Assembly (NCBI GenBank): GCA_002711845.1
Contig: PASF01000006.1
Location: 124,001 to 188,000, forward strand
Source of the DNA: Gammaproteobacteria bacterium
GTDB taxonomy: Bacteria > Pseudomonadota > Gammaproteobacteria > Pseudomonadales > Pseudohongiellaceae
Direction: 5' to 3'
Length of the DNA: 64,000 bases
Under the pieces are notes generated by a model that was not told where the DNA came from, made no database searches, and saw nothing but the letters and a program-made list of their open reading frames with translations. Positions 8,224-25,480 of the stretch are shown here, one piece after another. Positions within the stretch are counted from its first letter, which is position 1, and each line of letters starts with the position of its first letter. The translations under genes and the position numbers were made by a program.

Positions 8224-8299
8224 CTTTATCGGCCGATTTACCGACGATTTCAGTGCCGTCGCACACGACTCGCTCGTGCGCCGGCGACACACAGCCCGG

Positions 8300-8328
8300 T
8301 TGGGATTGCTGCGTGTTTGTGCCAGAAT
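8300..8328 (+). promoter_or_regulatory. Candidate sigma-70 promoter of mfd
   Basis: TTGGGA, 17-base spacer, CAGAAT, ending 32 bases before the chosen mfd ATG. It lies back to back with the gap promoter. Confidence 0.45.
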
Positions 8329-8360
8329 ACGCGCCCACTGCCACCAACAAGCCCGACACC

Positions 8361-11300
8361 ATGCCCGCATTCAATATTTTACGTCCTGAGCTGCCCGCTG
8401 CCAGACACACCGTGCAATGGCAGCCCCTGCCGGACAGCCAGCTCAGCCTGGCACTGGTGCAGGCCGCCAGGCAGGCACCCGGGCCGGTGCTGGTCATCAC
8501 CAACAGCAGCGAGGAAGCCGAACAGCTGCGCCGCGAGCTGCAGTTCTTCAGCGCCGGCGGCGGAAGAAGCGCCGGCGGCGATAAGAGCGCCAGCGACGGA
8601 AAAAGCGCCCTGCCGGTGTATACCTTCCCGGACTGGGAAACCCTGCCCTACGATACCTTTTCGCCGCACCAGGACATCGTGTCAGAACGTCTCAATGCCC
8701 TGTATCACCTGCCGGACATGCGCCGGGGCATTCTCATCGTGCCAGTCAACAGCGCCATGCACCGATTGCCGCCGCAGGCCTATGTGCAAGGCAACAGCCT
8801 GCAACTGGCCGCCGGCGAGACACTCAATACCGACACGCTGCGTCAGCGCCTGATCAACGCCGGCTATCAATATGTCGATTCAGTTTACGAGCACGGCGAA
8901 TTCACGGTACGCGGCGCCATCATGGATATTTTCCCGATGGGCAGCAAGCTGCCCTATCGTATCGATCTGTTTGATGACGAGATTGAGTCCCTGCGTATTT
9001 TTGATCCGGAAACCCAGCTGTCACTGGAAAAGGTGCCGGCCATTCGCCTGCTGCCGGGCAAGGAATACCCGCTTGACGAACACGGCAGGCGTGGCTTCCG
9101 TACTCGCTTCCGTGAGCTGTTCGATGTCGACACCCGGGACTGCACGCTGTACCAGGACATCAGTGAAGGTATCCAGAGCGCCGGGGTGGAATATTATCTG
9201 CCACTGTTCTTTGATGAGCTCAGTCATCTGTTCGAGTACCTGCCGGCCGACACCCTGATCGTGCGCAGCCGTCAGCTGGAGCCACCGGCGCTGCGCTTCT
9301 GGCAGGATATCGAATCGCGCTACGAGGACCGGCGCTATGACCGGCAACGCCCGATTCTGGCGCCTGCCACGCTGTTTCTGACGCCGGAAGACGTGTTCCG
9401 GCATATAAAGCACTTCAGCAGCATTGCCTTGCAGGACAGTGCCGACGCCGCAGGTACCGGCACTGACTTCCCCAATTTGAGTGCCGACAATGCCCGCGCC
9501 GAACCCTTGCAGGCACTGCATACCTGGTTGCTGGCGCACCCGGATTACCGGGTGCTGTTCTGCGCCGAAAGCGCTGGCCGCCGTGAAGTGCTGACCGAGC
9601 TGTTGCGCACCGCCGGACTCAGCCCGGTACCGGTGGACGGCTGGCGGGATTTTGTTGACGGTTCGCAGTCCATGGCCATTTGCATCGCCTCGCTGGACAA
9701 GGGCCTGCTGCTGCCCTCGGAAAAGCTGATGATGATCACCGAGACGCAGCTGCTGGGCCGCAAGATTGCCCAGCGCCGACGCCGGCGCCGCGCCCAGGAC
9801 AACACGGACTTCATCATCAAGAGCCTGACAGAGCTGCATCTGGGTGCTGCCGTGGTGCATATTGATCACGGTGTTGGCCGTTACTGCGGACTGCAGACGC
9901 TGACCATAGAAGACGAAACGGCGGAATTCCTGACACTTGAGTACGCCAATCAGGCCAAGCTGTATGTGCCGGTGGCATCATTGCATCTGATCAGCCGATA
10001 TGGCGGCGCCGATCCGGAGCTGGCACCACTGGACAATCTGGGCAGTGACCAGTGGCAGAAAAACAAGCGCAAGGCCGCAGAGAAAATCCGCGATGCCGCC
10101 GTGGAATTACTGGACATTTACGCCAAGCGTGAATCGCGCGGCGGCTTCCCGTTCCGCTGCGACGACATCGACTACGACAAGTTTGCCGCCAGTTTCCCGT
10201 TCGAGGAAACACCCGATCAGCAGGACGCCATCAACGGTGTCATTGCCGACATGCAGTCTGCCCGCAGCATGGACCGACTGGTGTGCGGCGATGTCGGGTT
10301 CGGCAAAACCGAAGTCGCCATGCGCGCCGCCTTCATTGCCGTGCAGAATCACAAACAGGTGGTGATGCTGGTGCCGACCACCCTGCTCGCCCAGCAACAC
10401 CACGACAGTTTTCGTGACCGTTTTGCTGACTGGCCGGTCAATATTGACCTGATCTCGCGTTTCCGCTCGGGCAAGGAACAGGATGCCACGCTGGAGAAAA
10501 TCCGCGCCGGTAAAGTCGACATCATTATCGGCACGCACAAGCTGCTGCAGAACTCGATCAAGTACAAGGACCTGGGTCTGCTGATTATCGACGAGGAACA
10601 CCGTTTTGGCGTGCAGCAGAAGGAACGTATCAAGGCCCTGCGTGCGGAAGTGGATATCCTCACACTGACCGCGACACCGATCCCCCGCACGCTCAACATG
10701 GCCATGTCGGGCGTGCGCGATCTGTCGCTGATTGTCACACCACCGGCCAAACGCCTGTCGGTGAAAACCTTTGTCCGCGAACAGCAGGACAGCCTGGTCA
10801 AGGAAGCCATCCTGCGTGAGCTGCTGCGCGGCGGGCAGCTGTTCTACCTGCACAATGAAGTCAAAACCATTGAACGCACGGCCGAGCATCTGCGTGATCT
10901 GGTGCCCGAAGCCCGTGTGTGTGTGGCGCACGGGCAATTGCCCGAACGTGAGCTGGAAGTGATCATGGCAGACTTCTATCACAAGCGTTACAACATCCTG
11001 GTGTGCTCGACCATCATCGAAACCGGCATCGATGTACCCAGCGCCAATACCATCATCATCGATCGCGCTGACAAGCTGGGCCTGGCGCAGCTGCACCAGT
11101 TGCGCGGACGGGTCGGACGCTCGCATCACCAGGCCTATGCCTACCTGCTGACGCCACCGCACAAGGCCATGTCCGCCGACGCGCTCAAGCGTCTGGATGC
11201 CATCACCGCCGCCAGCACGCTGGGCGCCGGCTTTACCCTGGCCAGCCACGACCTGGAAATACGGGGCGCCGGCGAGATTCTGGGTGAAGAGCAGACCGGG

Positions 11301-16052: not shown

Positions 16053-16087
16053 TAGTTGCGCTTTCAGATACCTCTCCGTTTGGACAA

Positions 16088-16558
16088 CGGCCCGGCCAGC
16101 GGGTAGCAGATCCAGCCCGACCGCCTTCTTTTGGCATTCACCGGGCGGTGCGGAACTCGACGTCGCGGCTGCGCCGCTCCGGACTCAAACAGTCCTACCG
16201 CTTTTTCCGGAGAATGCCAAAAGAAAAAACGCGGCCTGATTGGGCTGAATGCTGCCACCCGCTACCCGGGCCTTTTGCAACCGTCCATGCGGGCTACGAA
16301 CCTGCGGATTTGCACGAGGGACGGGGGTCGGAGGGAGCGCTGGGAACCAATCAGGCCATGTTTTCTTCTTTGCTCACGCACCCGATCAGCGGGAGGACTG
16401 TCTGAGTCCCGAGCGGCAGCGCCGCGAGGTCGCCCGTTTTTGAAATCATAGGCGCCCCGCCGGGTGCGGGAGCAAAGAAGATGGTCGGTTCACAGTGTCC
16501 CTCCGATTCCCGGCCCGATCTCATCAGGACCACAATCAACTACCCGCTGGCCGGGCCG
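16088..16558. repeat. Paired-hairpin intergenic repeat, copy 1
   Basis: Non-coding 471-bp element bounded by a perfect 19-bp inverted repeat (16088-16106 against 16540-16558). Inside are two long imperfect palindromes: unit A (16088-16272) with inner arms 16126-16144/16207-16225, and unit B (16329-16505) with arms 16365-16384/16461-16480. The loop of B, reverse complemented, matches the loop of A (shared GGACTCA, ACAGTCC and GCGGC), so the units are an inverted pair. A related copy lies at 24962-25389. It fills the gap between fkbM (plus) and the tRNA operon (minus). No protein is likely. Confidence 0.85.
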
Positions 16559-16624
16559 ATCTCGATCGAAGCACCTTGCCGTTTTGTCGAACGTGCAGGT
16601 TCTCATCCCGCCGCAGCCGCAAAC

Positions 16625-16654
16625 AAAAAAGGCCACCTGACGGTGACCTTTTTT
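16625..16654 (-). terminator. Rho-independent terminator of the tRNA Pro-His-Arg operon
   Basis: On the minus strand GGTCACC, a four-base loop and GGTGGCC are followed by six T's, three bases after the tRNA-Arg CCA end. The A-run on the other side makes it potentially bidirectional. Confidence 0.85.
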
Positions 16655-16657
16655 GTT

Positions 16658-16734
16658 TGGCGCGCCCGGCAGGAATCGAACCTGCAACCCCCGGCTTAGA
16701 AGGCCGGTGCTCTATCCGATTGAGCTACGGGCGC
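16658..16734 (-). tRNA. tRNA-Arg (anticodon TCT)
   Basis: A 77-base cloverleaf with CCA encoded. The acceptor GCGCCCG pairs with CGGGCGC; the anticodon loop CTTCTAA reads AGA. Last gene of the Pro-His-Arg operon. Confidence 0.97.
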
Positions 16735-16764
16735 AAAGCAGGCTCTGCTCCGCTGCTGGGAATA

Positions 16765-16841
16765 TGGGGTGGCTGATGGGGCTCGAACCCACGACAACCG
16801 GAGTCACAGTCCGGGGCTCTACCAACTGAGCTACAACCACC
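16765..16841 (-). tRNA. tRNA-His (anticodon GTG)
   Basis: A 77-base cloverleaf with CCA encoded. It has the extra 5' G (G-1) opposite discriminator C that defines tRNA-His. Middle gene of the operon. Confidence 0.97.
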
Positions 16842-16888
16842 ATAAATCAACTGTCGATCGCTATGACCAATGCATACGTTTGCGAAAT

Positions 16889-16965
16889 TGGTCGGGGTAG
16901 AGAGATTTGAACTCCCGACATCCTGCACCCAAAGCAGGCGCGCTACCAGACTGCGCTATACCCCG
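16889..16965 (-). tRNA. tRNA-Pro (anticodon TGG)
   Basis: A 77-base cloverleaf with CCA encoded. The acceptor CGGGGTA is typical of bacterial tRNA-Pro; the anticodon loop is TTTGGGT. First gene of the operon. Confidence 0.97.
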
Positions 16966-17007
16966 AAACTCGCCCCGAAAACATACCATCGTCATCGCGA
17001 GGACGGC

Positions 17008-17036
17008 ATAATACTCATGGAGGGCAACTCCGTCAA
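17008..17036 (-). promoter_or_regulatory. Sigma-70 promoter of the tRNA Pro-His-Arg operon
   Basis: TTGACG, 17-base spacer, TATTAT on the minus strand, about 35 bases before the tRNA-Pro. The GC-rich stretch after the -10 fits growth-rate/stringent control of stable RNA genes. Confidence 0.85.
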
Positions 17037-17052
17037 CGATTGATTGGAATTT

Positions 17053-18450
17053 CTACTCCCGTTCAATGCGCCAACGGCTGCCTTCGGCGCCATCTTCCAC
17101 CACCACTTTCATGGCATTGAGTTTATCGCGGATCTCATCTGCGAGCGCCCAGTTTTTATCCAGTCGCGCCTGACGTCGCTGGGCAATCAACGCATCGATG
17201 GCCTGCGCATCCACGTCCGCAGCGCTGTTGCGCAGGAAGACCTCAGGCACGTCCTGCAACAGGCCCAGCACACCACCGAGCTTCACCATTAGCCGCGCCA
17301 ATTCAGCGGCATGCACAGCATCCAGGTCCCGGGCTTTGTTCAGGTCACGGGCCAGTTCAAACAGCACGGCGATTGCTTCGGCGGTATTAAAATCGTCATC
17401 CATGGCCTGCCGAAAGGCTTTTTCGTATTGGCTGTTGGTCAGGTCACGGGCCTGCTCGGCGCCGGCACCGCGGATGGCCAGATACAGTCGCTCCAGTGAC
17501 GCAGCGGCCTGCTCCAGGCCCTGATCCGAATAATTGATGGGGCTGCGATACTGACTGGCAACCAGCAGATAGCGCACCACTTCAGCCGGGTATCTGGCCA
17601 GAACGTCGCGCACGGTGAAGAAATTGCCCAGCGATTTGGACATTTTTTCATTGTCGACACGCACCGAGCCATTGTGCATCCAGTACCGGGCAAAATGTTT
17701 ACCGGTGGCCGCCTCCGACTGTGCAATCTCGTTCTCATGATGCGGGAACATCAGGTCCGAGCCGCCCCCGTGAATATCAAACGAATCACCGAGGCAGCAG
17801 GTCGACATCGCCGAGCACTCGATGTGCCAGCCCGGACGCCCGTAACCCCAGGGCGAGTCCCAGCCTACATCGTCGTCCTTGGCTGCTTTCCACAATGCAA
17901 AATCCCGCGGGTCACGCTTCAGTTCACCGACTTCGATACGGGCGCCCGCCAGCAACTCTTCCGGATTCTTGTTGGACAGCTTGCCGTAGCCGTCGAACTG
18001 ACGCACCGCGTAATACACATCGCCATTGCTGGCACGATAGGCATGATCACTGGCAATGAGTTTTTCAATCATGGCGACGATGTCTGCAATGTGCGCCGTC
18101 GCCCGTGGCTCATGGTCCGGCTGCAACACGAACAGCGCGGCTTCATCTTCGCGCGTGGCGGTGATAAAACGCTCGGTCAGGTCAGCAAAATACTCGCCAT
18201 TTTCCCGGGCCCGACGCAAGATCTTGTCGTCGATATCGGTGATATTGCGCACATAATTGACGTCATAACCCAGATACCGCAGATACCGCACGACCACATC
18301 GAAGGCAACCAGCATGCGGGCGTGGCCAATGTGGCTGTAGTCGTACGTCGTCAAACCGCAGACATACATGCTCACCTTGCCCGGTTGCAGCGGCTCAAAG
18401 CGTTCCTTTCTGCGTGTCAGCGTGTTGTAGATCTGTAAATCGTTGCTCAT
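17053..18450 (-). CDS. cysS: Cysteine-tRNA ligase
   Basis: Class I aminoacyl-tRNA synthetase (465 aa). The HIGH motif is in TTYDYSHIGHAR and KMSKS in NEKMSKSLGN. Zinc ligands appear as the cysteine of MYVCGLTTYD, ECSAMS and the histidines of MFPHHENE. The start is ATG 18450 ([11 protein letters not shown]), sharing its A with the glnS TGA stop, which points to coupling. The tRNA operon promoter lies directly behind its stop codon. Confidence 0.97.
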   Translation of the reverse strand: MSNDLQIYNTLTRRKERFEPLQPGKVSMYVCGLTTYDYSHIGHARMLVAFDVVVRYLRYLGYDVNYVRNITDIDDKILRRARENGEYFADLTERFITATREDEAALFVLQPDHEPRATAHIADIVAMIEKLIASDHAYRASNGDVYYAVRQFDGYGKLSNKNPEELLAGARIEVGELKRDPRDFALWKAAKDDDVGWDSPWGYGRPGWHIECSAMSTCCLGDSFDIHGGGSDLMFPHHENEIAQSEAATGKHFARYWMHNGSVRVDNEKMSKSLGNFFTVRDVLARYPAEVVRYLLVASQYRSPINYSDQGLEQAAASLERLYLAIRGAGAEQARDLTNSQYEKAFRQAMDDDFNTAEAIAVLFELARDLNKARDLDAVHAAELARLMVKLGGVLGLLQDVPEVFLRNSAADVDAQAIDALIAQRRQARLDKNWALADEIRDKLNAMKVVVEDGAEGSRWRIERE

Positions 18451-20240
18451 CATCCTGATATCTTCGCCCATGAATCGCGCAGGCTGACCGTCCGGTTGAC
18501 CACCAGTCTGCCGGGTGCACTGTCAACACGGTCAACACAGAAATAACCTTCCCGCTCGAACTGGAAGCTGTCTTCGGCCGCCGCTGTCGCCAGTGACGGC
18601 TCAGCCAGGCAACCGGTCAATATCTGCAGCGAATCCGGGTTCAGACTGCTCTTGAAGTCACCCAGTGCCTTGTCGTCGGGATTGGCGTTCAGGAACAGTC
18701 TGTCGTAAATGCGGACTTCTGCCGGCACCGCGGCAGCAGCGGGGACCCAGTGAACCACGCCCTTGACCTTGCGACCGACCGGGTTCTGACCCAGCGTCTG
18801 GTCATCGTAACTGCAGCGTAACTCAATGACCTCGCCGGCAGCATTCCTGATGACCTCGTCACAACGAATCACGTAGGCACCGCGCAGGCGGACCTCGGCG
18901 CCGGTGGTCAGGCGCTTGAACCCGGGCGGGGGCACTTCTTCAAAGTCACTGCGATCGATAAACAGCTCGGCAGCAAACGGCAGTTCCCGGTGCCCGATAT
19001 CCTTTTTTGGATGCCTGGGCAGCTGCAGAATTTCCTGTTTGTCCGCCGGATAGTTGGTGAGCGTGACTTTTAGCGGGCGCAGCACACACATCGCGCGTGG
19101 CGCATGGGTGTCCAGATCTTCACGGATGCTGTGCTCCAGCATGCCCACATCAACAATGCTTTCGCTGCGACTCATGCCGATCATGTCGCAGAAGTGACGA
19201 ATGCTGTGCGGGGTGTAACCGCGCCGGCGCAGGCCTGACAGCGTCGGCATGCGTGGATCATCCCAGCCGGACACCAGGCTGAGCTCCACCAGTTCCTTGA
19301 GTTTGCGTTTGCTCATCACGGTGTAGTTGATGTTCAGCCGCGCAAATTCGGTCTGCTCGGGCAGCACATAGGCCGCCTCCGGCGCCTTGTTGCCCAGTGC
19401 CACGCAGGCAGCATCGAGCGACTCGGCCGGCAGGTTCTGCAGAATCCAGTCGTACAGTGGCCGGTGATCCTCAAACTCCAGTGTGCACAGGGAATGTGTG
19501 ACATGTTCCAGCGCATCGGAAATGCAATGCGCGTAGTCATACATCGGATAGACTTTCCAGGACTCGCCGGTCTGATGATGGTTGATGCTGCGAATACGAT
19601 AGATGACCGGATCGCGCATATTGATATTGGGTGAGGCCATATCAATTTTCGCGCGCAGACTGTGGCTGCCGTTGGCAAATTCGCCGGCCTGCATGCGTGT
19701 AAACAGATCCAGGTTTTCCTCGACACTGCGCTCGCGGAACGGACTGTCGCGCCCGGGTTCGGTCAGCGTGCCCCGATATTCACGTGCCTGATCCGGCGTC
19801 AGGCTGCACACATAGGCTTTGCCCAGACGAATCAGCTCAATGGCGAAGTCGTACAGATACTGAAAATAGGATGATGTGTAGCGCACCTCGCCCTGCCAGT
19901 CGAAACCCAGCCAGCGGATGTCCTCGCGAATTGCATCGATGTATTCCTGGCTTTCTTTTTCCGGGTTGGTGTCATCAAAGCGCAGATTGCAGGCCCCCTG
20001 ATAACCGGCATCCAGATAGGACCGGGCCAGACCGAAGTTCAGGCAGATCGATTTAGCATGACCGATGTGCAGAAATCCGTTGGGTTCCGGGGGAAACCGG
20101 GTCTGTACGCGACCACCGTGCTTGCCCGCCGCCAGGTCCTGATCAACCAGGTGGCGGATAAAATGTGACGGACCCTTGTGGTCGATTCTGTCAGCGTTCG
20201 CGGGCGTTTCGGCGTGATCGGTGTTGCTGGCATCTGTCAT
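18450..20240 (-). CDS. glnS: Glutamine-tRNA ligase
   Basis: Class I synthetase (596 aa). The HIGH motif is in [18 protein letters not shown], and the KMSKS-like signature is VMSKRKL. It is about 40 residues longer than the E. coli enzyme, with extra length split between the N-terminus (starting [11 protein letters not shown]) and the beta-barrel anticodon-binding part. First gene of a glnS-cysS unit; a presence of direct GlnRS means Gln-tRNA need not be made by transamidation. Confidence 0.97.
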
Positions 20241-20278
20241 AGTGGCAATTCTGCTTTCTCGGAAGGCTTAAAGCCACT

Positions 20279-20284
20279 ATTATA
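20279..20284 (-). promoter_or_regulatory. Candidate -10 box of glnS
   Basis: Perfect TATAAT on the minus strand 39 bases before the glnS ATG. No convincing -35 at standard spacing. Confidence 0.4.
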
Positions 20285-20345
20285 ACGTTTTGTGGCCACC
20301 ATCATCTACAACTAACCACGACAACCAACAAGAGCGCAGTGCATT

Positions 20346-20852
20346 ATGATTGTTTTTAAAACCAACTACGGTGATATCCAGGTTGAGCTGGATTTTGACA
20401 ACGCCCCGCTGTCAGCAGCGAATTTTCTGGCTTATGCCCGCAGCGGCTTCTACGACGGCACCATCTTTCACCGTGTGATCGACAACTTCATGGTCCAGGG
20501 CGGCGGTTTCGGCTCCGGCATGGAGCAGAAAGACAATGGCGAACCGATTCAGAACGAAGCTGACAACGGCCTGACCAATGACGCCGGTACGCTGGCCATG
20601 GCACGCACCTCGGACCCGCATTCAGCCACTTCACAGTTCTTCATCAATGTCAGCGACAACAGCTTTCTCAACCATAAGAACAAGACCCCGCAGGGCTGGG
20701 GTTATGCGGTGTTCGGCAAGGTGACCGACGGCATGGACGTGGTCAATCGCATAAAACAGTGCAAAACCGGTTATGTGGGCGGCCATCAGGATGTACCATT
20801 GGACGAAGTGGTCATCAAATCAACGGAAGTGACTTACCCGGACACTCTCTGA
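20346..20852 (+). CDS. ppiB: Cyclophilin-type peptidyl-prolyl isomerase B
   Basis: Cytoplasmic cyclophilin (168 aa) catalysing cis-trans isomerisation of X-Pro bonds. No signal peptide. Catalytic and binding segments: [34 protein letters not shown], the [16 protein letters not shown] strand. Diverges from glnS; lpxH begins two bases after its stop, so the two are co-transcribed, as is common in gammaproteobacteria. Confidence 0.97.
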
Positions 20853-20854
20853 GT

Positions 20855-21652
20855 ATGAGCAACAACGCGAACAAAACCCTGTTTATCTCCGATCTGCATC
20901 TGGATACGGACACGCCGGGCATACTGCAAAGTCTGCTCGCCGTCCTGCACGATCGCGCTGAAGGCGCCGATGCGCTGTATATCCTGGGGGACCTGTTCGA
21001 AGCATGGGTGGGCGACGACGATCAGAGTGATATTGCCGATGCCGTCGCCACCGCCCTGATGTCACTGAGTCAGGCCGGCACGGCGGTTTATCTGATGCAC
21101 GGCAACCGCGATTTTCTGCTTGGCGAGGATTTTGCCGCGCGCTGTGGCGCCACCCTGCTGGCCGACCCGACCGTCATTGAGTGTTACGGCCGGCGCGTGG
21201 CGCTGTCGCATGGCGACAGCCTGTGTACCCGCGACACGGCCTACATGACGTTCCGCAAGCAGATGCGAGATCCGGCATGGCAGCAGGCGTTTCTCGATCG
21301 CCCCCTGCTGGAGCGACACATGGTGGCACAGCAGATCCGCCAGAAAAGCCAGGACGCCAACAGCCACAAAGCCTCCGACATCATGGACGTCACCCATCAG
21401 GAGGTCATCAAGCTGATGGAGAGCCTGCAGGTTGATATCCTCATCCATGGCCACACTCACCGACCCGGCATCCACACCATCCGTCTGCATGATGCCATCA
21501 ATGGCAGTGACGAAGCGGTCCGTATCGTGCTCGGCAGCTGGGATCAGAAGGCCTGGGTACTGGAGTTCAGCCCCGAGGGTTATGCGCTCACGCCCATGGC
21601 GCATCCGCAGCCTGCCGCACCCACCAAACCGGCAAAAGCAGCAAAAGCCTGA
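20855..21652 (+). CDS. lpxH: UDP-2,3-diacylglucosamine diphosphatase LpxH
   Basis: Mn-dependent calcineurin-like phosphoesterase (265 aa) that hydrolyses UDP-2,3-diacylglucosamine to lipid X in lipid A synthesis at the inner membrane. Metal-binding motifs: ISDLHLD, GDLFEAWVGDD, HGNRDF, SHGDSLC and HGHTHRPG. The start is ATG 20855, two bases after the ppiB stop. The C-terminus carries an Ala/Pro/Lys-rich tail that looks dispensable. Confidence 0.95.
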   Translation: MSNNANKTLFISDLHLDTDTPGILQSLLAVLHDRAEGADALYILGDLFEAWVGDDDQSDIADAVATALMSLSQAGTAVYLMHGNRDFLLGEDFAARCGATLLADPTVIECYGRRVALSHGDSLCTRDTAYMTFRKQMRDPAWQQAFLDRPLLERHMVAQQIRQKSQDANSHKASDIMDVTHQEVIKLMESLQVDILIHGHTHRPGIHTIRLHDAINGSDEAVRIVLGSWDQKAWVLEFSPEGYALTPMAHPQPAAPTKPAKAAKA

Positions 21653-21668
21653 GCAGCCCTCAAGACTG

Positions 21669-22124
21669 TCAGGATGATAGCTCGGGGAAATAGCGGATAC
21701 GGTGTGCCTCACACAGTCGCAGTAGCTGCACGTCCATGTCTTCAGCCAGTTCGGGCAGCGACAGATGACGCCATGGCTGGCGAATCTCGACGCCGTACCC
21801 CGACAGATCCTGAATCTGGCGATGGCGCTTTTTCAGCAGACTGTGCAGCCAACTGGCCGGCGACAGGTCCGGATTGCACGGTACCGCCTGGCGCTTGAGG
21901 CCGGCTGCCAGCGTCTGCGCGGAGCGAATGATAAAACGATCGTCCACGATAGGCTGCACCAGCGCCTCAATGCGCTGCAGTACCGCCCGTTTTTCGTCGT
22001 CCGAATAAGCGTTCCAGTCGATCACCTCAAATGCAAAGCGCTTGCAGCCGCGGCAGATGGGGTCACCGACTGAGGTGGTCGAGCAAATGCCGATGCACGG
22101 CGTTTTCACCGGTGCTTGAGTCAT
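21669..22124 (-). CDS. DUF1289 domain protein
   Basis: Protein of unknown function (151 aa). The N-terminal DUF1289 domain has four cysteines (C10, C14, C24, C27; pattern CIGIC...CRGCKR) likely to bind a metal or Fe-S cluster. The rest is a ~90-residue extension without a recognised domain. It faces lpxH tail to tail with a 16-base gap and diverges from acnB. Confidence 0.75.
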
Positions 22125-22253
22125 AAGTTGTCTCGGTCTGGTTGTCCGTCAACGACGTACAACTGGAAATTTTTGCCATTTTACACTAAAATCAGCACCC
22201 ATTTTTCACCGCTTACCGAATCTATCATCATTACCGTATCAGAGGGGATAACT

Positions 22254-24848
22254 GTGTTAGAAGCATATCGCAAACACGTGGCCGAACGCGCTGACATGGG
22301 CATTGTGCCCAAACCACTGGACGCAGCGCAGGTTGCGGAGCTGGTCGACCTGCTCAAAAGCCCGCCGGCCGGCGAAGAGGAATTCATCCTGGATCTGATC
22401 ACCAACCGCGTGCCGGCTGGCGTTGATGAAGCCGCCTACGTCAAGGCCGGCTTTCTGTCTGCCGTGGCCAAGGGTGAAGTGACCTCCCCCCTGATCGATA
22501 AAAAACACGCCGTCAAACTGTTGGGCACCATGCTGGGTGGCTACAACATCACCACTCTGGTGGACCTGCTGGACGACAAGGAACTGGGCGAAGCGGCTGC
22601 CGAAGAGCTTAAACATACCCTGCTGATGTTTGATGCCTTCCATGACGTGGAAGAAAAAGTCAAAGCCGACAACGCCAATGCCAAGACGCTGATGCAGTCC
22701 TGGGCCGACGCCGAATGGTTCCTGAACAAGCCGGAAGTGCCAAAGAAGCTGACGACCACTGTCTACAAGGTACCCGGCGAAACCAATACCGATGACCTGT
22801 CACCGGCACCCGATGCCTGGTCACGTCCGGACATTCCATTACACGCGCTGGCCATGTACAAGATGCCACGTGAAGGCGTCACCAATGCCGCCGAACAGAT
22901 TGCCGAGCTGAAGAAAAAGGGCCACCCTGTCGCCCTGGTCGGTGACGTCATGGGTACCGGCTCATCACGCAAATCAGCCACCAACTCGGTGCTGTGGAAT
23001 ATCGGTGACGATATCCCCTATATCCCCAACAAGCGCGACGGCGGTATCTGTATCGGTGGCAAGATTGCCCCTATTTTCTTTAACACCATGGAAGATGCCG
23101 GCGCCCTGCCCATTGAATGTGATGTGGAGAACATGAACACCGGCGATGTCATTGATATTTACCCGTACGAAGGTAAAGTGCTGAAACACGGCAGCGATGA
23201 GCGGGTGTGTGACTTTGAGTTGAAAACCGACGTGCTGCTCGACGAAGTGCGCGCCGGTGGCCGTATCCCGCTGATCATCGGTCGTGGCCTGACCGACAAG
23301 GCACGCGCCTCGCTGGGCCTGCCGCACTCCACCGTCTTCCGCATCCCATTCCAGGTTGCCGATAGCGACAAGGGTTTTACCCTGGCCCAGAAAATGGTGG
23401 GCAAGGCCTGTGGCGTCAAGGGCGTGCGCCCGGGCAGCTACTGCGAACCCAAAATGACCACCGTTGGCTCCCAGGACACCACGGGGCCGATGACCCGCGA
23501 CGAGCTGAAAGACCTGGCCTGTCTGGGTTTCTCCGCCGACCTGGTGATGCAGTCCTTCTGTCACACCGCGGCGTATCCCAAACCGGTCGACATCGACACC
23601 CAGCACACCCTGCCTGACTTTATCCAGACCCGTGGCGGTGTGGCACTGCGTCCGGGCGATGGCATCATCCACAGCTGGCTGAACCGCATGCTGCTGCCTG
23701 ACACGGTCGGCACCGGTGGTGACTCTCACACGCGCTTCCCGCTGGGCATTTCCTTCCCGGCCGGTTCCGGCCTGGTGGCCTTTGCTGCTGCGACGGGCGT
23801 GATGCCGCTGGACATGCCGGAATCGGTACTGGTGCGTTTCACCGGCGAGATGCAGCCTGGCATCACCCTGCGTGATCTGGTCAATGCCATTCCGTACGCA
23901 GCCATTCAGTCAGGCGACCTGACCGTGGCCAAGAAAGGCAAAAAGAACATTTTCTCCGGCCGTATTCTGGAGATTGAAGGGCTGCCGGATCTGAAGGTTG
24001 AACAGGCCTTCGAGCTGTCGGATGCTTCCGCCGAGCGTTCTGCTGCTGGCTGCACCATTCGCCTGGGCCAGGAACCGATCATTGAATACTTCAAGTCCAA
24101 TATTGCCCTGCTGCGCTGGATGATCAGTGAAGGGTATGGCGATGCCCGTACGCTGGAGCGTCGTGCCCGTGCCATGGAAGCCTGGCTTGAAGAACCCAAA
24201 TTGATGGAACCGGACGCGGATGCCGAATACCACAAGATCATCGAGATTGACCTGAACGAGATCAAAGAGCCACTGCTGGCCTGTCCCAACGATCCGGATG
24301 ACGTGAAAACATTGTCTGACGTCCAGGGCACCAAGATCGATGAAGTGTTCATTGGTTCGTGCATGACCAACATCGGTCATTTCCGCGCCGCCAGCGAAGT
24401 GCTGAAACAGGTAAAAGGCTCGTTGCCAACTCGCTTGTGGATTTCCCCGCCAACCAAGATGGATCAGCATCAGTTGACCGAAGAAGGTATCTACAGCGTG
24501 TTTGGTGTGGCCGGTGCACGCACGGAAATGCCGGGCTGTTCACTGTGCATGGGTAACCAGGCACGGGTTGCGCCCAGGTCTACAGTGATCTCCACCTCGA
24601 CACGAAACTTCCCGAACCGCCTGGGCGACGGTGCCAATGTTTACCTGGCATCCTCAGAGCTGGCGGCAGTGGCATCGGCGCTGGGCAAGATCCCGACCAT
24701 GGATGAGTACATGTCGTATATGGGTAATGTGAAAACCATGTCGGACAACATCTACCGGTATCTGAACTTTAATGAGATCAAGTCGTACATGGAGGCGGCG
24801 GAGCGTCAGAAGGCGATTCCGGTGACCAACATCGCTAGCGTTGCCTGA
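22254..24848 (+). CDS. acnB: Aconitate hydratase B
   Basis: Bifunctional aconitase B/2-methylisocitrate dehydratase (864 aa; E. coli 865) of the TCA cycle. The 4Fe-4S ligands are in SCMTNIGHF and [15 protein letters not shown]-type and [16 protein letters not shown] regions are present. The start is GTG 22254 ([14 protein letters not shown]), with GAGGGG 6 bases upstream; upstream in-frame codons are leader. AcnB is known to moonlight as an mRNA-binding iron sensor in E. coli. A terminator and then repeat copy 2 follow. Confidence 0.98.
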
Positions 24849-24868
24849 CGATCTTAAGTTCTTGCGAG

Positions 24869-24917
24869 AAACGGCTCGGGCGGTGGGTATCAACTCACTG
24901 TCCGGGCCGTTTTTTTT
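24869..24917 (+). terminator. Rho-independent terminator of acnB
   Basis: AACGGCTCGGGCGGTG pairs with CACTGTCCGGGCCGTT with few mismatches, followed by a run of T's, 20 bases after the acnB stop. Confidence 0.85.
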
Positions 24918-24961
24918 GTAGCTGCCAACAGGTTATTGTTTGACCAGATTCTATTGGAGTG

Positions 24962-25389
24962 CGGCCCGGGTAGCGGGTAGCAGATCCAGCCCGACCGCCT
25001 CCTTTTGTGATTCACCGGGCGGTGCGGAACTCGACGTCGCGGCTGCGCCGCTCCGGACTCAGACAGTCCTACCGCTTTTTCCGGTGAATCACAAAAGGAG
25101 AAACGCGGCCTGATTGGGCTGAATGCTGCTACCCGCTACCCGGGCCTTGTGCGAGTCTGCGGCAACCATTTCTCTGAGGCCTTGCACGAGGGCCGGGGGG
25201 CGGAGGGAGCGCTGGGAACCAATCAGGCCATGTTTTCTTCTTTGTCCCCGCACCCGATCAGCGGGAGGACTGTCTGAGTCCCGAGCGCCAGCGCCGCGAG
25301 GTCGCCCGTTTTTGAAACCATAGGCGCCCCGCCGGGTGCGGGGGCAAAGAAGATGGCCGGTTCACAGTGTCCCTCCGATTACCGGCCCG
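24962..25389. repeat. Paired-hairpin intergenic repeat, copy 2
   Basis: Second copy of the element at 16088-16558. Unit A (24963-25146) has perfect 21-bp outer arms (24963-24983/25126-25146) and perfect 19-bp inner arms (25000-25018/25081-25099). Unit B (25201-25377) has inner arms 25237-25256/25333-25352 with one mismatch. Hairpin parts are well conserved against copy 1, while the ~55-base spacer between units is not. It lacks the 19-bp terminal inverted repeat of copy 1. It lies between acnB (plus) and a lipoprotein gene (minus). No coding content is credible. Confidence 0.85.
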
Positions 25390-25480
25390 CTCTTCAACAT
25401 GATGCAACCAGCCATCTTGCAGGAATAAAAAGAGTGCCGAAGGACGTGCAGCAACCCCCCGACACTAAAAGGTGAGTTCC

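What the first reader, a model, noticed from the sequence alone, without database searches (positions are those of the whole stretch)
16088..25389. Undescribed two-copy intergenic element made of two long hairpins in inverted orientation
A ~430-470 bp non-coding element occurs at 16088-16558 and 24962-25389. Each copy has unit A and unit B, both long palindromes of ~180 bases. The loop of B, reverse complemented, resembles the loop of A (GGACTCA/ACAGTCC mini-hairpin, GCGGC tract). It has the layout of a REPIN/BIME but is several times larger, and I recognise no known family.
Basis: partly seen in the sequence, partly recalled or inferred. Interest (0 to 1): 0.8.

Follow-up and report, generated by a model that had tools for sequence, protein, structure and literature searches.

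The report
Dispersed large hairpin repeat family
Two look-alike stretches of non-coding DNA in this bacterium belong to a wider family of roughly 200-base hairpins with a conserved centre, scattered between genes across a genus and found more thinly in distant relatives, and in one sister species some of them sit inside smaller repeats tied to a known kind of transposase gene.

Summary
In detail: two 430-470 bp copies (16088-16558; 24962-25393), each with two ~190-nt hairpin units in inverted orientation, folding far better than shuffles (z -10.8, -15.1). It is not a two-copy curiosity. All 15 Pseudohongiella genomes searched have 5-31 model hits, as do 15 of 39 genomes of the family; exact-core relatives occur in Thauera. 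No Rfam match, even at E<=1. Each unit is a long stem with variable, co-varying arms, a conserved TGATT bulge and a conserved crown. Mismatches indicate that the fold is kept on one strand (A.C 98, G.T 6 in one stem). Units avoid divergent (promoter) gaps, show no fixed orientation to genes, and similar copies at different loci share their ends. In one complete sister genome 12 of 31 units sit inside opposite repeats 245-278 bp apart that also flank a Y1 (RAYT-type) transposase gene; two of these composites are 99% identical at different loci. Best reading: non-autonomous REPIN/MITE-like mobile hairpins acting as folded single-stranded DNA, carried in one lineage by a RAYT. What moved the window's own copies is unknown.

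The parts
16088..16275 (+). unit A of copy 1: ~190-nt hairpin, given in core orientation (by the mismatch test the folding strand is the complement)
16153..16195 (+). conserved crown of unit A, copy 1 (GAACTCGAC..hairpin..GGACTCAAACAGTCC)
16237..16241 (+). conserved 5-nt bulge TGATT in the 3' arm of unit A, copy 1
   Evidence: read against alignment A1; the strict-stem scan misses this copy because its neighbouring stem has a mismatch
16310..16522 (-). unit B of copy 1: same family in inverted orientation, crown partly replaced
   Evidence: partial model hit
16083..16563 (.). outer inverted repeat closing copy 1 (arms 16083-16111 and 16535-16563, 86%)
   Evidence: I4
24962..25148 (+). unit A of copy 2 (94% to copy 1)
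25027..25069 (+). conserved crown of unit A, copy 2
25111..25115 (+). conserved bulge TGATT, copy 2
   Evidence: read against alignment A1
25182..25393 (-). unit B of copy 2 (95% to copy 1's B), crown partly replaced
   Evidence: partial model hit

Best explanation
Each unit is a non-autonomous, mobile, chromosomal hairpin element of about 200 bp. Shown: dispersed copies with shared ends, a fold whose mismatches favour one strand, a conserved bulge and crown, and in one species nesting inside opposite REP/TIR pairs that also flank a Y1 transposase gene. Inferred: it spreads as folded single-stranded DNA, the bulge and crown being what a HUH-type enzyme of the RAYT/IS200-IS605 kind (or a helper) reads on one strand; the variable arms only have to pair. 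In G008 the unit has become the loop of a giant REPIN and moves with it. In the window's species the A+B pair was copied as one ~445-bp module to two places 9 kb apart, or homogenised between them. Insertions survive mainly downstream of genes because they do least harm there.
For: Ends: listed within-genome pairs of at least 85% identity outside G000 and G008 stop 56-75 bases left and 80-101 right of the crown; the six listed G008 pairs stop at 108-120/120-139, i.e. at the enclosing repeats (six best pairs per genome shown). Composites: 12 of 31 G008 units lie inside adjacent opposite REP/TIR matches 245-255 bp apart (one 278), 0.04 expected by chance; L170 and L173 are 99% identical at unrelated loci, and among the 300-bp flanks of 14 stretches the only match was 27 nt between two others. 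The same repeat flanks the Y1 gene of G008, which matches Pfam Y1_Tnp over its cut-off and the REP-associated tyrosine transposase model under its cut-off (64.2 of 80 bits). Strand: A.C 98 against G.T 6 in stem P1 (64 against 5 distinct contexts) and 64 against 16 in the outer stem (55 against 14), same direction in my groups A-D; RNAalifold -99.8 on the folding strand against -77.9 on the other, 47 of 63 pairs with changes on both sides (40 of the 52 units picked). Crown: 88.3% of cells paired against 78.2% shuffled, covariation 0.263 against 0.092, slid versions at most 0.104. Bulge: TGATT in 44 distinct strict-stem contexts of the held loci, the 19 other permutations of its letters 0-4. Placement: gaps with units convergent 54, tandem 36, divergent 6; unit-free gaps 9, 16, 17 (p 0.0002 and 3e-6). 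Own genome: the two window copies resemble each other (A 94%, B 95%) more than copy 1 resembles its G006 (A 83-84%, B 78%) or G013 (A 87%, B 86%) counterparts. TnpAREP acts on one strand of a folded REP and needs its bulge: passages of PMC8266576.
Against: No transposase was found beside the units outside G008: 0 model hits in 14 Y1 loci (13 distinct genes); 0 of 91 held units outside G008 have the REP/TIR decamer on both sides (a looser pattern gives 1 in G001 and 1 in G014). A 322-aa Y1 gene is matched in 35 of 39 family genomes (29 with a full-length match) whether or not they carry the unit. The 240-aa Y1 class is missing from 6 of the 15 genus genomes, all of which carry units. The G008 Y1 frame is short (profile matched from position 16 or 27) and may be dead. 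No clean empty site or target duplication was found: in the best case (1.19 kb in G009 against 113 bp in G007) the short allele holds other repeats. Of the 98 A.C mismatches 61 lie at two neighbouring positions shared by many copies, leaving 37 against 6, and strand bias of mutation could add to it. One control was not beaten (further pair types 18 against 16.1, 75 of 500 shuffles as high). G011 units are nearly as close to the window's A (up to 92%).
Confidence: 0.6

Rival explanations
1. Family of functional structured RNAs (3'-end, antisense-blocking or small RNA) whose copies are kept because the RNA does a job; movement is secondary.
For: Conservation of the crown across Pseudohongiella, Thauera and other Gammaproteobacteria; strand-specific fold with G.U tolerated; on the folding strand two internal loops can be read as tandem G.A pairs (by eye); units often lie close behind stop codons and some positions are shared between species, e.g. 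behind acnB in 5 of 14 readable genomes.
Against: In tandem gaps the orientation to the gene is 24 against 20, no bias; 9 of 14 genomes have no recognisable unit within 900 bp behind acnB; no Rfam relative; no conserved promoter-like sequence seen upstream of the folding strand (by eye, not scanned); near-identical extra copies at new places.
Confidence: 0.22
2. Passive palindromes: inverted DNA that persists and stays palindromic through template switching and gene conversion, with no selection on a fold.
For: Arms differ from copy to copy yet pair; a unit with mismatched arm types (L078:1528) and a 22-bp remnant of unit A in G013 suggest recombination and deletion.
Against: Template switching would be expected to erase the bulge and internal loops too, yet they are conserved; it predicts no A.C/G.T strand asymmetry; copies share ends.
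Confidence: 0.08
3. Protein-binding or chromosome-organising sites (BIME-like, or terminus-domain markers).
For: Long GC-rich palindromes in 3' gaps; in G008 ten of 23 clusters fall in one 300-kb window beside the GC-skew switch (p 0.0018; the window size was chosen after seeing the list).
Against: Copy number is low and positions differ between species; no binding data; a strand-specific fold is not expected of double-stranded binding sites.
Confidence: 0.1

Closest known systems
REPINs / BIMEs mobilised by RAYT (TnpAREP), as in Pseudomonas and E. coli
   Same: Intergenic, often two hairpins in inverted orientation, a bulge, strand-specific constraint; in G008 nested in opposite repeats that flank a Y1 transposase gene. 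Position downstream of genes and between convergent genes is also typical of REPs (abstract of PMC3733652, seen).
   Different: Unit ~200 bp against 20-50 nt REPs (PMC8266576, passages); commonest inter-REP spacings of 71 and 110 bp in P. fluorescens (PMC3116915, passages) against 245-278 here; 5-31 hits per genome; no unit found beside a RAYT.
TIR repeats and TIRYT genes (Y1 transposases flanked by long inverted repeats, many with a GGGGWSAS motif)
   Same: The repeats beside the Y1 genes of this genus begin GGGGACGG or GGGGTCGG, and some enclosing repeats in G008 GGGGTCAG, which fits GGGGWSAS (PMC3733652 and PMC6006769, passages); TIR dimers are known; both Y1 classes resemble RAYTs below the model's cut-off, the 322-aa one with a DnaA-like C-terminus.
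   Different: In the passages read, dimer spacers are mostly 20-100 bp, some with small stem-loops, and some REP dimers lie inside longer palindromes; a dimer holding a ~200-bp conserved hairpin was not described there.
MITEs (ERIC, NEMIS and the like)
   Same: 70-300 bp, inverted ends, no coding capacity, near genes, strong hairpins (class description in PMC3733652, passages).
   Different: No parent insertion sequence and no target duplication found; the inner crown is conserved across genera while the arms vary.

Membership tests
REPIN / RAYT system | Palindromes of about 20-50 nt | tested here: not met
   Units are ~190-200 bp.
REPIN / RAYT system | Unpaired GTAG-type tag beside the palindrome | not tested
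   GTAG was seen in some arms by eye; no systematic test.
REPIN / RAYT system | Same repeat flanks a RAYT (Y1) gene in the genome | tested here: not met
   0 unit-model hits in 14 Y1 loci of the genus, 13 distinct genes.
REPIN / RAYT system | Carried inside an inverted pair of RAYT-flanking repeats | tested here: inconclusive
   Met in G008 (12 of 31 units); not met in the 11 other genomes with held units (0 of 91; a looser pattern gives 2).
MITE | Short, non-coding, dispersed, discrete ends | tested here: met
   Shared ends; crown inside a mechanical ORF of 150 aa or more in 26 of 119 against 1912 of 2380 random points.
MITE | Ends shared with an autonomous parent element, target-site duplication | tested here: inconclusive
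   No parent met; the one allele comparison was not clean.
Known structured RNA (Rfam 15) | Score above a family's gathering threshold | tested here: not met
   No match at the units at gathering over the window or at E<=1 over ten loci.
Integron attC site | attC core sites and a linked integron integrase | not tested
   Considered only; no integrase search was made.

The most novel reading that the evidence does not exclude
The crown-and-bulge hairpin is the recognition module of an undescribed, widespread single-stranded-DNA (or RNA) mobile system of Beta- and Gammaproteobacteria. Its enzyme acts in trans on one folded strand; the arms are free to vary as long as they pair; and the module can be captured by other mobile repeats such as REP/TIR dimers, making hairpin-in-hairpin composites.
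Probability: 0.25. Interest if true: 0.8.

Novelty: new variant of a known kind. Interest (0 to 1): 0.55.

Why it matters
If right, REPIN-like elements are not limited to tiny hairpins: a much larger folded module with a deeply conserved centre spreads in bacterial genomes and can ride inside RAYT repeats. The strand test by A.C/G.T mismatches gives a simple way to tell single-stranded from double-stranded constraint in any palindromic repeat. G008, a complete genome with 12 composites and a Y1 gene between the same repeats, makes the question of how RAYTs move large cargo directly testable.

Tried and rejected
Coding explanation: the 106-aa ORF over copy 1 is mechanical; compensatory changes and varying arms speak against coding. 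A cis-acting 3'-UTR RNA with fixed orientation looked likely after (83 of 96 head-side genes point to the unit) but was dropped: in tandem gaps the orientation is 24 to 20, the earlier figure coming mostly from convergent gaps. A first mismatch count over whole arms pointed the other way (G.T 863, A.C 581); it ran past the stems and included fixed mismatches of the conserved parts. The anchored counts replaced it; the outer stem showed no asymmetry (A.C 123, G.T 108), which appeared only when the count was anchored at the bulge. The 322-aa Y1 gene as mobiliser: its presence does not follow the unit. Replication-strand bias in G008: counted by eye, none (6 against 5 on one arm, 10 against 10 on the other, taking the switch between 1.43 and 1.82 Mb). 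Inverted target repeats around composites: 15 and 10 bp in two, but over all 12 own pairs are only somewhat better than cross pairs (mean 8.6 against 6.5 of 15; 19 of 132 cross pairs reach the own mean), not claimed. A GGACT..AGTCC mini-hairpin: by inspection the co-variation favours pairing of its outer bases with the other arm. Data notes: of the 119 units pooled in Python (120 found; 119 with full flanks) one (L075:9370) is a false pattern match inside acnB and was not removed from the counts. The loci were fetched because they hold units, so the bulge count is not a genome-wide rate; the same strict scan finds no TGATT context in the window itself. Groups A-D are my grouping of species, not a tree. 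In one search the stretch named L180 was cut off target. Genome searches score only part of their candidates (13 per genome, up to 150), so copy numbers are lower bounds, and E-values of the home-made model are rough.
Full report
WHAT IS THERE. The window is G000:C6:124001-188000; it lies in the genus of genomes whose matching contigs are titled Pseudohongiella. The two copies exist as described: 92-94% identical, each with unit A and unit B in inverted orientation, both folding far better than 100 dinucleotide shuffles. Copy 1 follows an FkbM-domain methyltransferase gene and precedes a tRNA cluster; copy 2 follows acnB. Copy 1 is closed by an extra outer inverted repeat.

A FAMILY. By BLAST 15 of 15 genomes of the genus (own included) and 1 of the 41 others in the set match. 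A covariance model of the crown (R1: 35 sequences that I picked, 69 positions, 16 pairs) finds 5 to 31 hits in each of 15 genus genomes, hits in 15 of 39 family genomes from 5 of 8 genera, in 4 of 37 order genomes and in 14 of 369 class genomes (strict filters), the window's own genome counted in each. An exact core pattern finds 39 stretches in the genome collection: Pseudohongiella, Thauera and MAGs named only to class or phylum. The same exact pattern finds 0 in viral contigs. BLAST finds no match to the window element in phages or plasmids, none to a distant relative in plasmids and none to another distant relative in E. coli genomes; the window element itself was not searched in E. coli. 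No Rfam family.

ANATOMY OF A UNIT (core orientation). Outer stem, 29-31 perfect pairs in several copies (one longer run, 118, ends at a contig end); a GGCCGC/GCGGCC-like step beside a conserved 5-nt bulge TGATT; an internal loop; a variable ~18-bp stem P1; then the crown: a short stem, the conserved strands AACTCGAC and GGACTC..ACAGT facing each other, and a GC hairpin. In the crown the structure tested holds in 88.3% of cells, with changes on both sides in 11 of 16 pairs; one of its five measures did not beat the shuffles. Over the whole unit 47 of 63 predicted pairs have changes on both sides (40 units). With strict stems the held loci give 44 distinct contexts for TGATT and 0-4 for each of the 19 other permutations; the window gives none, since its copies have a mismatch in the neighbouring stem. 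Of the 44, 41 are units and 3 are a shorter hairpin behind acnB in other species. The same layout with the bulge is seen in another family of the order (L023; G037).

WHICH STRAND FOLDS. If a palindrome is kept only as double-stranded DNA, A.C and G.T mismatches should be equally common. Counts anchored on the stems give A.C 98, G.T 6 in P1 (116 units) and 64, 16 in the outer stem (111 units), the same direction in each of my groups A-D. In P1 61 of the 98 lie at two neighbouring positions; without them it is 37 to 6. So the complement of the core orientation is the strand whose fold is kept. A first, unanchored count gave the opposite sign and is explained in the rejected section. The asymmetry fits single-stranded DNA or RNA; it does not separate the two.

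PLACE IN THE GENOME. Of 96 gaps holding units 54 are convergent, 36 tandem, 6 divergent; of 42 unit-free gaps in a subset of the loci 9, 16 and 17. In tandem gaps units point either way (24 to 20). Crowns fall in a mechanical ORF of at least 150 aa in 26 of 119 cases (one a false match) against 1912 of 2380 random points. Behind acnB, 5 of 14 readable genus genomes carry units within 900 bp (the fifteenth was not examined). Some positions are shared between species, so copies can be old.

MOVEMENT. Similar units in one genome stop matching at nearly constant distances from the crown (best pairs shown), which defines ends. In G008, a complete genome, a 25-bp repeat has 93 matches at up to 3 mismatches, 0 for the reversed control; 89 distinct places remain after dropping 4 that match on both strands. 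Of 31 adjacent opposite pairs closer than 400 bp, 12 hold a unit, at a nearly fixed spacing (245-255, once 278; 11 in one order, 1 in the other). The same repeat stands on both sides of a Y1 transposase gene. Two composites are 99% identical at unrelated loci; the other listed G008 pairs that align end to end are lower, several at 90-93%. This is the strongest evidence that units travel, at least as cargo. In the window's own genome a 239-aa Y1 gene with its own repeats exists, but those repeats do not enclose the units. The two window copies are closer to each other than to their counterparts in G006 and G013, with G011 units nearly as close, so the A+B module was probably copied or homogenised within this lineage.

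INTERPRETATION. Shown: family, shared ends, strand-biased fold, avoidance of promoters, nesting in RAYT-type repeats in one species. Inferred: spread as folded single-stranded DNA read by a HUH enzyme; the enzyme for the other lineages is unknown. The RNA rival keeps about one chance in five, mainly because the crown is conserved between distant genera.

LITERATURE SEEN. Passages only of PMC3733652, PMC3116915, PMC8266576 and PMC6006769. Searches for the core letters (20 of 47 papers listed, 12 listed), for Pseudohongiella repeats (1 listed), for REP families (11 listed) and for REPIN/RAYT hairpins (8 listed) showed no paper that, by title, abstract start or the passages read, describes this family. 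Papers outside the held library were not searched, and the supplements were not read.

Noticed in passing
L045:890-2961 (G008:C1:1939665-1941736): Y1 transposase gene with a short open frame between two inverted copies of GGGGACGTAGACCGCCTCCGTCCCC; the repeat is present about 90 times in that genome and resembles the TIR/REP dimer kind.
   Followed up: yes
L072:2209-3177 (G000:C15): 322-aa Y1 protein with a DnaA-like C-terminus; 35 of 39 family genomes have a match, 29 a full-length one, so probably a vertically kept host gene. Its neighbours looked like cmoB and rpmG, labels recalled and not checked by a call.
   Followed up: partly
L233, L234, L236 (downstream of acnB): A shorter hairpin (about 75 nt) with the same TGATT bulge, followed by a T-rich stretch, lies where other species have the large unit.
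   Followed up: partly
L058:3100-3300 and L242 near 8250-8440 and 17150-17420: A third hairpin-like repeat with core AGGAGCGASGAAAACCTGASGAGGA next to or in place of units.
   Followed up: no
G008:C1 1.82-2.09 Mb: Units cluster near the GC-skew switch (10 of 23 clusters in one 300-kb window); the enclosing repeats are also dense there by eye.
   Followed up: partly
L170:1623-1893 and L175:3957-4226: These composites lie between flanking inverted repeats of 10 and 15 bp, as if inserted into an existing palindrome.
   Followed up: partly
G012:C26:119508-122936: Seven weak to strong crown hits packed in 3.5 kb, a local array.
   Followed up: no
L078:1528-1676: A unit whose 5' arm is of B type and 3' arm of A type, suggesting recombination between copies or an assembly join.
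   Followed up: no
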